Assembly: GCA_001403755.1 (NCBI GenBank)
Contig: CYUH01000012.1
Location: forward strand, 62,001 to 126,000
DNA length: 64,000 nt
Reading direction: 5' to 3'
From: Chryseobacterium senegalense
GTDB taxonomy: Bacteria > Bacteroidota > Bacteroidia > Flavobacteriales > Weeksellaceae
Below, piece after piece: positions 50,763 to 53,347 of the stretch (positions within the stretch are counted from its first letter, which is position 1; each line of letters opens with the position of its first letter). A program made the translations under genes and the position numbers. Under the pieces are notes generated by a model. It was not told the origin of the DNA, did not search any database, and saw only the letters and a list, made by a program, of their open reading frames with translations.

Positions 50763-51329
50763 TTAATAGATTTTAGGATTCCATTTTTCCGGATATTTCG
50801 GAGTGATATTTTTGTAATAATTCTCCATTTCCTGCATGATATCTTCGAAAGTCCGGGTTTCCAAATCTTCTACAGAAATTTTATAGCCCAGATGGATTTC
50901 TTTGTGTTTGAAATCGCCTGCTGCAACCACAATCGGAACTTTAGCAGCGAGTGCCATGTGATAAAACCCTTTTCGCCACTTGGGTACCCAACTTCTGGTT
51001 CCTTCGGGAGTAATTACAAGACTGAAATCATCTTTTTTGAACTCATCGGCAACGAAATTCACCAAATCATTTTTCTGTGAACGGTCAATCCCAATTCCGC
51101 CTAAAGCTTTAACGATAAAGCCATACCAAGCTTTGGTGTGCGCATCTTTGATGATGATTTTCAGCGGTTTATCGAGTGCCCAATATGCCAAATTTCCCAA
51201 AATATATTCTGAGTTGGAAGTATGAGGAGCCACTACAAGAATACATCGGTTGAGCGTTTCTACATCGCCTTCAAGAACGATTTTCCAGCCAACAAGTTTC
51301 AGGATCAGTTTTCCGAGGAATTTTTTCAT
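50763..51329 (-). CDS. Lysophospholipid (1-acylglycerol-3-phosphate) acyltransferase-like protein
   Basis: A 188-residue PlsC-family protein. The EGTR motif (VITPEGTRSW) is intact. The catalytic HX4D box is changed: PHTSNSEYIL gives H-x4-E. PlsC transfers fatty acyl chains to lysophosphatidate. Whether a Glu supports this is unclear. ATG 51329 is used; the TTG at 51347 lies beside a terminator stem. The gene starts 15 bases before the thioesterase on the same strand, and its 5' side holds a terminator, so read-through or a weak internal promoter is required. Confidence 0.8.
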   Translation of the reverse strand: MKKFLGKLILKLVGWKIVLEGDVETLNRCILVVAPHTSNSEYILGNLAYWALDKPLKIIIKDAHTKAWYGFIVKALGGIGIDRSQKNDLVNFVADEFKKDDFSLVITPEGTRSWVPKWRKGFYHMALAAKVPIVVAAGDFKHKEIHLGYKISVEDLETRTFEDIMQEMENYYKNITPKYPEKWNPKIY

Positions 51330-51343
51330 TTTGAAATATTTAA

Positions 51344-51378
51344 ACAAAAAAGTATAACCAGTGTATTGGTTATACTTT
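51344..51378 (-). terminator. Terminator/attenuator between tiny peptide and acyltransferase gene
   Basis: AAAGTATAACCA (51349-51360) pairs perfectly with TGGTTATACTTT (51367-51378), a 12-bp stem with a 6-base loop, followed on the minus strand by a T run. It ends the tiny peptide unit and may attenuate the acyltransferase operon. Confidence 0.85.
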
Positions 51379-51405
51379 ACAAATATATTGAATTAATATT
51401 CTTAA

Positions 51406-51468
51406 CTAAAATAAACTGCTGATGAAATCGATGATTTTGATTGCGATTTCAATAACGAACTGTACCAT
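51406..51468 (-). CDS. Tiny amphipathic peptide (20 residues)
   Basis: ATG at 51468 opens a 20-codon frame ending in TAG at 51406-51408. The product starts MVQFVIEIAIKII and ends DFISSLF. Nearly all residues are hydrophobic, with Glu 7, Lys 11 and Asp 14 spaced to lie on one helix face. A possible promoter box (TAATTTCG, one base off) is 49 bases upstream and a perfect terminator 27 bases downstream, so it makes a self-contained transcript. It could be a membrane-active or leader peptide. No homologue was searched. Confidence 0.5.
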   Translation of the reverse strand: MVQFVIEIAIKIIDFISSLF

Positions 51469-51517
51469 GATTTGCTGTTGTTTAAATGTTAATAGTGACT
51501 GGTTAAAATTAACAGTA

Positions 51518-51550
51518 CGAAATTAAGTTTTATTTTAATAAAATCACAAA
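51518..51550 (-). promoter_or_regulatory. Possible promoter of the tiny peptide gene
   Basis: On the minus strand TTTG (51547-51550), 21 bases, TAATTTCG (51518-51525), the latter one base off TAnnTTTG. Confidence 0.4.
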
Positions 51551-51596
51551 ATAACATGTTAAAATTTATTAAAATATTTTATCGTGGAACAAGCGA

Positions 51597-51633
51597 AAAG
51601 CGGATTTTTTATAAAGATAAATGCCTCCGCCTT
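51597..51633 (-). terminator. Possible weak terminator of the PspC-domain gene
   Basis: AAGGCGGA and TCCGCTTT on the minus strand (51626-51633 and 51597-51604) form an 8-bp stem with one G-U pair and a long 21-base loop, then TTCGC. Weak. Confidence 0.4.
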
Positions 51634-51649
51634 TGCTCATCCACTCTCA

Positions 51650-53347
51650 TTATTTAGTTTTAATGGAAATTTCTTTCTTGCCGTTCTTGATGGAAATATT
51701 CACATCCTGAAATTTATCAAAATCTACTTTCATAGAATCCATTACTTTATCAGCTGCTGCTTTTGGCATTTTTTTCCCGTTGATGATTACGCTGTCAGCA
51801 TCATTGGAACTGTACTGAATCGTAGATCCATTGATTTTTATTTTATTTTTTTCGATCACCACGCCGTTGTCGTCACTATCATCATCATTTCCGTCACCAT
51901 CAAGATCGCCATCGAGGTTTACGCCATCTTCTTTCAGTTTGAAAACTTTTGTGGACATCGGAACAACCAATTCATAATTCACAGAATAATCGCGGAAACG
52001 GTGTTTGTAAGGATACTTAACGAAATTTGGCAAGAGGATTTTGTTGTTTTCAATTTCCAGAGGAACAGTCAATTCAATAGGAACATTGTAGCCTTCTCCT
52101 TCTTTTTTGATGATTAAATAAGGTGTTTTCACATCCGCTTTGCGCGTTACATTTACGTAAGGATAATCTTCTTCGTAGACATCTTTCTTGTCGGAATAAA
52201 TATCGTCATCATATCCGATAAAGTTTTGCGGAATAACCACTTGTTTTATATCCACATACAAACTATCAGAAGTGGTATTGATGGCGACGTTTTCGGTATC
52301 AACCTTATGACCTTTGTAGATCATATCTTTTTTTGCCATGTTGATTCCGAAATAAGTTCCGAATGCCAAAAGGATTAAAAATAATGCTCCAAGTACATAT
52401 CCTACGTTTCTCAATTGAGTTTTCGGTGAGATTAATTTGATGGAAAGCAAGCTGAATAATAGTGCAGGAATCAATACTCCGATAATCATCATTCCATATA
52501 AAACATTGCTCATTCCGCCATCTTCAAAAAGAAAATTAAATTCTCTTAGCGGTGGAAATTCATTGGTCCCAAACATTCCGAAGAGGAAAAATGCACCTAC
52601 AATACACATTAATGCCATGAAAGCGAACAGACTTCCTAGAATATAGCGGAACACGTTCCACAAACCGCTTCCTGCATTGTTGATATACGGTTTATTTTCG
52701 TTGTAGATCTCGCCTACTCTTTGGGTAGATTCGTTTGCAAATTGCACCAATTTGTTGGATTCATTTTTTAAATTATCAAAATTCATGGGCTTTCCCTTCA
52801 TTTTCAAAAAATCCGTTGCTGTTTCTGCTTTTGGCAAAACGATCCAAAGAATCACATAAATTAAGATGATTAATGAAGTAGAAATTGCCGCAGTGAAAAT
52901 TCCTAAAATTGCAACGCCCAGCCAAATAGCACGCATCGCACTTATATCCATTCCAACATAATGAGCTAAACCGGCGCAAACTCCAGCGATTTTCTGTTTC
53001 TCAGGATCACGGAAAAGTTGTTTTTGGCGGCTGTTACCTGCAGATTTACTTTCTTTTCTGGCATTTTTTTCCGAGAAATAAGCTTCTTCTTGTTCTTCGA
53101 TTTGCTCAGGTTTTCCGATTTGGGAAATTACTTTTTCTACATCAGCATCGTTGATAACTTCTCTTTTACCAAGGGTATCTTTGAAGATTTCCACCATTCT
53201 GATTTCGATATCGTGCATTACCTCATCTGCTTCGTGTGCATCCAAAGAGCTTCGGAGCGCAGCAAGGTAATCGCTGAGTTTGATGTATGCATGTTCCTCG
53301 ATTGTGAAAGAGAAACCGGCGAGTCCTATTGAGAGTGTCTTGTTCAT
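51650..53347 (-). CDS. PspC-domain membrane protein
   Basis: A 565-residue protein. The first 90 residues resemble the small helical head of HAAS/DUF1700-type proteins (YIKLSDYLAALRSSLDAHEA). A PspC domain follows (KQKIAGVCAGLAHYVGMDI, near 115-133) with a membrane helix. Further membrane segments lie near 165, 230, 285 and 320, then a long soluble tail with a Gly/Asp-rich calcium-like run DGDLDGDGNDDDSDDN near 490. PspC proteins take part in envelope stress. The gene is four bases downstream of a PadR regulator gene and probably controlled by it. Confidence 0.85.
   Translation of the reverse strand: MNKTLSIGLAGFSFTIEEHAYIKLSDYLAALRSSLDAHEADEVMHDIEIRMVEIFKDTLGKREVINDADVEKVISQIGKPEQIEEQEEAYFSEKNARKESKSAGNSRQKQLFRDPEKQKIAGVCAGLAHYVGMDISAMRAIWLGVAILGIFTAAISTSLIILIYVILWIVLPKAETATDFLKMKGKPMNFDNLKNESNKLVQFANESTQRVGEIYNENKPYINNAGSGLWNVFRYILGSLFAFMALMCIVGAFFLFGMFGTNEFPPLREFNFLFEDGGMSNVLYGMMIIGVLIPALLFSLLSIKLISPKTQLRNVGYVLGALFLILLAFGTYFGINMAKKDMIYKGHKVDTENVAINTTSDSLYVDIKQVVIPQNFIGYDDDIYSDKKDVYEEDYPYVNVTRKADVKTPYLIIKKEGEGYNVPIELTVPLEIENNKILLPNFVKYPYKHRFRDYSVNYELVVPMSTKVFKLKEDGVNLDGDLDGDGNDDDSDDNGVVIEKNKIKINGSTIQYSSNDADSVIINGKKMPKAAADKVMDSMKVDFDKFQDVNISIKNGKKEISIKTK

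What the first reader, a model, noticed from the sequence alone, without database searches (positions are those of the whole stretch)
51344..51550. Stand-alone transcription unit for a 20-residue amphipathic peptide
Between the PspC gene and the acyltransferase, a 20-codon ATG frame (51468 to 51406) codes a nearly pure hydrophobic helix with three charged residues on one face. A promoter-like element lies upstream and a perfect 12-bp terminator directly after it. It is too short for usual gene finding. It could be a membrane-active peptide, a signalling peptide, or the leader of an attenuator for the phospholipid acyltransferase that starts after the hairpin.
Basis: partly seen in the sequence, partly recalled or inferred. 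Interest (0 to 1): 0.62.

Follow-up and report, generated by a model that had tools for sequence, protein, structure and literature searches.

The report
Family-wide gene for 20-residue amphipathic peptide
A 20-codon gene that standard gene finding misses is kept, nearly unchanged and almost always beside the envelope-stress gene pspC and a lipid acyltransferase gene, in hundreds of species of one bacterial family, so these bacteria very probably make a tiny membrane-binding helix whose job is unknown but testable.

Summary
The ORF at 51468-51406 (MVQFVIEIAIKIIDFISSLF) is intact in all 25 Kaistella genomes compared, with codon-position variation 41/13/133 and dN/dS about 0.11. Relatives occur in about 250 of 296 genomes of the family (25 of 33 genera), nearly always between pspC and the acyltransferase gene, and were not found outside the family. 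Length stays at 20-21 residues; all 51 orthologues tested are amphipathic.

In three genera the gene lies inside the 3' end of pspC in another frame, and pspC's wobble positions are frozen exactly there: a true overlapping gene. In two genera a paralogue precedes a LytTR-type histidine-kinase operon.

A Bacteroidetes -7 box precedes the ORF in 56 of 60 loci. The 12-bp hairpin is real, but a second -7 box abuts it, so the hairpin is probably both the peptide's terminator and the 5' end of the acyltransferase mRNA. The attenuator idea is not supported.

Most likely function (inferred, about 0.4): a peptide at the cytoplasmic membrane that serves the PspC envelope-stress module in bacteria mostly lacking PspA. 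Transcription, translation and activity are untested.

The parts
51406..51468 (-). 20-codon peptide gene, MVQFVIEIAIKIIDFISSLF, stop TAG included
   Evidence: intact in 25/25 genus loci, codon-position variation 41/13/133, dN/dS 0.11; profile hits in 251/296 family genomes
51518..51525 (-). -7 promoter box TAATTTCG of the peptide gene (predicted +1 near 51513)
   Evidence: TAHHTT[TC]G upstream of the ATG in 56/60 loci, 3.9 expected from shuffles; -7 definition from PMC6847099 and PMC9723704
51557..51563 (-). TTTAACA block 31 bp upstream of the -7 box, conserved in nearly all genus loci; possible upstream promoter or regulator site
   Evidence: alignment of 25 loci; pattern unique in window
51346..51378 (-). 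12-bp hairpin (6-nt loop) and T-run (51351-51346): intrinsic terminator of the peptide transcript and probable 5' end of the acyltransferase mRNA
   Evidence: 98.7% of base-pair cells kept over 25 loci, AU to GC double change in 3; stem sequence replaced but still paired in L064, L068, L069
51380..51387 (-). second -7 box TATATTTG abutting the hairpin: probable promoter of the acyltransferase, predicted +1 near 51375 at the hairpin base
   Evidence: TAnnTTTG just before the hairpin in 47/60 loci plus several touching it; kept without the peptide in L115 and L121
50763..51329 (-). downstream acyltransferase gene (PF01553), start codon about 46 nt after the predicted +1
   Evidence: Pfam E 8.4e-11; adjacent in nearly all family loci
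51650..53347 (-). upstream pspC gene (PF04024, LiaI-LiaF-TM_PspC, weak toast-rack)
   Evidence: Pfam; adjacent in nearly all family loci; in three genera its 3' end overlaps the peptide gene

Best explanation
Shown by comparison: 51468-51406 is a real protein-coding gene for a 20-residue peptide, under strong purifying selection across the family, with conserved promoter and terminator signals in most genera. Inferred: the peptide is made without a signal sequence and folds into an amphipathic helix with a polar face of about 120 degrees (Q3, E7, K11, D14, S17/S18) and bulky hydrophobic residues elsewhere, so it lies at the cytoplasmic membrane. Inferred, most likely function: it is a small partner or sensor of the PspC-type envelope-stress module, a free amphipathic helix that reads or changes membrane packing and acts with PspC, in a family where PspA, the usual amphipathic-helix effector, is almost always missing.
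For: Gene is real: (dN/dS 0.11); distribution. In g25, g37 and g43 the gene overlaps the pspC 3' end; there pspC third-position variation drops from 45 (12 columns upstream) to 1 (12 columns inside) while peptide third positions vary, so peptide and pspC are physically inseparable in those genera. Position next to pspC is kept in nearly all genera. In the G005/G008 lineage pspC and the acyltransferase have separated and each keeps an intact copy. PspC was found in 30/33 genus representatives, PspA in only 2/33. Amphipathicity is significant in all 51 orthologues tested (p<=0.008).
Against: No physical or genetic link to PspC is shown; neighbourhood alone could be inherited by descent. The peptide stays with the acyltransferase where pspC is not within the fetched flank (L023, L029, L067, L122). 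Six genera have PspC but no peptide was detected (g18, g31, g33, g34, g44, g48). A paralogue sits by a LytTR histidine-kinase operon instead. The helix could also span the membrane as an oligomer. No transcript or peptide has been observed.
Confidence: 0.4

Rival explanations
1. The peptide is a secreted signal or surfactant, like a phenol-soluble modulin or a pheromone: exported, then sensed by a kinase or acting on membranes outside.
For: Size, lack of a signal peptide and amphipathicity resemble alpha-type phenol-soluble modulins (general knowledge); one of 38 members touches the NCBIfam PSM-epsilon model at E 0.054. Paralogues in two genera (g24, g47) lie upstream of a PF06580 histidine kinase operon.
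Against: The main copy has no transporter, kinase or processing gene beside it in the loci read. The sequence is very conserved across a whole family for a variable pheromone. The profile matches no PSM significantly.
Confidence: 0.22
2. The peptide regulates the acyltransferase (or membrane lipid synthesis) directly as a small membrane subunit or sensor.
For: The acyltransferase is the next gene in nearly all loci, and the link survives where pspC is not adjacent (L023, L029, L067, L122).
Against: The acyltransferase has its own predicted promoter after the peptide gene. In L073, L172 and L173 the peptide is with pspC and not with the acyltransferase. Acyltransferase homologues outside the family lack the peptide.
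Confidence: 0.2
3. Type I toxin: a small hydrophobic membrane toxin held down by an antisense RNA.
For: Short hydrophobic peptide with its own promoter and terminator signals.
Against: Mostly single-copy, syntenic and near-universal in the family, not patchy. An antisense TAHHTTTG box lies in the ORF region in only 6/60 loci. Not found on the plasmids or phages searched. Some copies overlap pspC.
Confidence: 0.06
4. Leader peptide of an attenuator that controls the acyltransferase.
For: A terminator hairpin lies between ORF and acyltransferase; the peptide is rich in Ile and Val.
Against: Amino acids, charged residues included, are conserved. A -7 box for the acyltransferase follows the ORF. 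Box plus hairpin persist without the peptide (L115, L121). Paralogues lie at other genes.
Confidence: 0.03
5. The conservation reflects a non-coding RNA, not a peptide.
For: Hairpin and promoter are conserved too.
Against: Third-position excess 133 vs 41 and 13, 390 vs 212 and 96 family-wide; constant 20-21 residue length; frozen pspC wobble sites in the overlapping genera.
Confidence: 0.02

Closest known systems
SpoVM (Bacillus subtilis, 26 aa, membrane curvature sensor)
   Same: short stand-alone amphipathic helix without signal sequence
   Different: no sequence relationship was tested or is apparent; different phylum, no sporulation; net charge about -1 here, whereas SpoVM is cationic (general knowledge)
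Phenol-soluble modulins, alpha type (Staphylococcus)
   Same: about 20 residues, amphipathic, no signal peptide
   Different: no significant profile match; no exporter beside it; family-wide synteny with pspC
Phage-shock small proteins and helices (PspA amphipathic helix, PspB/PspD/PspG, LiaI)
   Same: gene beside pspC; predicted membrane-associated small helix
   Different: 20-21 residues only, no match to any Pfam or NCBIfam family; occurs mostly where PspA is absent
Type I toxins (TisB, Fst, Ibs) and attenuator leader peptides
   Same: very short hydrophobic ORF with own promoter and hairpin
   Different: no conserved antisense promoter, no patchy distribution, no regulatory codon run

Membership tests
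Protein-coding gene (as opposed to spurious ORF) | changes concentrated in third codon positions, frame intact in relatives | tested here: met
   41/13/133 over 25 loci; dN/dS 0.11
Intrinsic terminator | hairpin plus T-run, pairing kept when sequence changes | tested here: met
   98.7% cells paired, double changes in 3 loci; replaced stems still paired
Phenol-soluble modulin | match to a PSM profile | tested here: not met
   1 of 38 members at E 0.054, others none; no Pfam match
Phenol-soluble modulin | secretion and membrane lysis outside the cell | not testable with these tools
   needs culture supernatants or synthetic peptide
SpoVM-like curvature sensor | stand-alone amphipathic helix | tested here: met
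   moment maximal at 100 degrees in 51/51 orthologues, p<=0.008
SpoVM-like curvature sensor | preferential binding to curved membrane | not testable with these tools
   needs liposome assays
Type I toxin-antitoxin | antisense RNA gene overlapping the toxin | tested here: not met
   antisense -7 box in only 6/60 loci; consensus scan only, no expression data
Attenuator leader peptide | downstream gene depends on read-through of the terminator; regulatory codons in the leader | tested here: not met
   own -7 box before the acyltransferase in most loci, also without the peptide; no codon run
Attenuator leader peptide | conserved alternative antiterminator structure | not tested
   no dedicated fold of leader plus hairpin was made
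Psp system component | physical interaction with PspC or response to envelope stress | not testable with these tools
   only synteny and gene overlap are known

The most novel reading that the evidence does not exclude
A previously undescribed family of 20-21 residue peptides is a core component of a PspA-less envelope-stress system throughout one bacterial family. It stands in for the PspA amphipathic helix as a free peptide that partners PspC, and has been recruited to a LytTR-type histidine kinase in some genera.
Probability: 0.3. Interest if true: 0.8.

Novelty: new variant of a known kind. Interest (0 to 1): 0.6.

Why it matters
It would be among the shortest family-wide conserved bacterial genes; it matches no Pfam or NCBIfam family, and no paper holding its sequence was found in the library searched. 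It points to a concrete missing part in the envelope-stress biology of bacteria that have PspC but no PspA. The overlapping version is a clear case of a tiny gene constraining a larger one. The shared hairpin suggests a compact design in which one transcript's terminator is the next transcript's 5' end.

Tried and rejected
Rfam: only a tRNA in the window. Pfam, NCBIfam and PDB sequence searches: no family. Homologues outside the family: none at E<=0.001 in 296 order-level and 395 class-level genomes (samples that include some family members); the best are partial matches (L113 inside a 293-aa frame, L181). Plasmids and phages: none. Papers: no relevant hit with the sequence, none relevant on small peptides of Weeksellaceae or Chryseobacterium. 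AlphaFold was not usable (20 residues, minimum 30). Type I toxin and attenuator were considered and set aside (see rivals).

Full report
WHAT IS THERE. The window lies in a 2.56 Mb genome whose nearest relatives are Kaistella species; several relatives' contigs match named Kaistella records in length and position. On the minus strand the order is pspC (51650-53347), a -7 box TAATTTCG (51525-51518), the 20-codon ORF (51468-51406), a second -7 box TATATTTG (51387-51380), a 12-bp hairpin with T-run (51378-51346), then the acyltransferase (ATG at 51329) and a thioesterase.

IT IS A GENE. The 301-bp region is found in all 24 other genus members searched. In the alignment of 25 loci the ORF runs from ATG to a stop after 20 codons (21 in two) in every one. 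Departures from the majority base by codon position are 41, 13 and 133; mean pairwise dN is 0.107 and dS 0.958. Over 60 loci from the whole family the figures are 212, 96 and 390.

HOW FAR IT GOES. A covariance model of ORF plus hairpin hits 233 of 296 family genomes at E<=0.001. A 20-residue profile hits 251 of 296 at E<=0.02 in 23 genera, a few of these weakly. A separate profile finds a divergent 21-residue form in g25, g37 and g43, which adds two genera; the two profiles align over their full length (hhalign probability 87%). Together this gives 25 of 33 genera. Outside the family nothing credible was found in order or class. Genera without a detected copy are g18, g21, g23, g31, g33, g34, g44 and g48; g21 and g23 are represented by incomplete genomes.

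THE PEPTIDE. Consensus M[VI]Q[FLV][VA][LIF]E[IV][AV][IMV]KI[IVM]DF[IV]S[SNG]LF. Q3 is invariant in 51 orthologues; E7 41/51, K11 40/51, D14 45/51, L19 47/51, F20 47/51. In all 51 the hydrophobic moment peaks at 100 degrees and exceeds shuffles (p 0 to 0.008). The polar residues fall within about 120 degrees of the helix. This is an amphipathic helix that could lie in the membrane interface or oligomerise across the membrane.

THE OVERLAPPING FORM. In g25, g37 and g43 the ORF starts inside pspC, in another frame, and runs past its stop, which sits at offset 38 or 50; in the 12 loci read the peptide always ends at codon 21. In the overlap, pspC wobble positions vary 1 time in 12 columns against 45 in the 12 columns just upstream. 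Peptide third positions vary 19, first 4, second 1. Selection on pspC alone is not expected to give this pattern. A terminator-like hairpin again follows the peptide.

COPIES. In sister genomes G005 and G008 pspC and the acyltransferase have separated, and both keep an intact peptide gene. In g24 and g47 a paralogue (for example MITLFIEIAVKIIDFFTQLF) lies upstream of a PF06580 kinase, with a LytTR regulator in the g24 loci long enough to show it, usually behind its own TAnATTTG box.

TRANSCRIPTION SIGNALS. In F. johnsoniae and F. psychrophilum the main sigma factor recognises TAHHTTTG at -12 to -5 (PMC6847099, PMC9723704). Such a box (T or C at the seventh base) lies within 110 nt upstream of the ATG in 56 of 60 loci, 3.9 expected. 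A TAnnTTTG box ends just before the hairpin in 47 of 60 loci, and touches it in several more. This predicts that the acyltransferase mRNA starts at the hairpin. The box and hairpin are kept without the peptide in L115 and L121, so the hairpin is not only the peptide's terminator. The hairpin itself is well supported: 98.7% of pair cells kept, with double changes.

FUNCTION. Not shown. PspC is present in 30 of 33 genus representatives and PspA in 2. The gene is beside or inside pspC nearly everywhere. The best guess is a free amphipathic helix that works with PspC at the cytoplasmic membrane; signalling, acyltransferase control and surfactant roles remain open.

LIMITS. No expression data were available. 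The class and order searches sampled genomes. The promoter reading rests on consensus boxes. The amphipathicity filter used to look for missed copies was chosen after seeing the peptides; the same filter gave 0.1 hits per 600 nt in the window and none in the nine loci read outside the family. The terminator scan accepts weak stems, so its 60/60 overstates the case for a few distant loci such as L070, L072 and L073.

Noticed in passing
window 51587-51650 (minus strand), and the same place in L015, L020, L021, L042-L061: A long imperfect hairpin (about 20 bp, loop of variable length) follows the pspC stop codon in many genera, without a T-run; it may be the pspC mRNA 3' end or a processing site.
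   Followed up: partly
window 51349-51387; L115, L121: A promoter -7 box abutting a terminator hairpin, so that one mRNA's terminator is the predicted 5' end of the next; kept even without the peptide gene.
   Followed up: partly
L054, L078, L079, L080 (G221): One genome carries four copies of the locus with identical model scores, three on a 27.8 kb contig; amplification or assembly artefact.
   Followed up: no
L138, L164, L171: Beside the paralogue in g24: a 66-aa ORF (MKDYKVESLIYY...) and a DUF3667 protein before the histidine kinase.
   Followed up: partly
L158 (G270): A second lone copy, MIQVVLEIAIKIADFISSLF, with no pspC, acyltransferase or kinase match within 1.5 kb.
   Followed up: no
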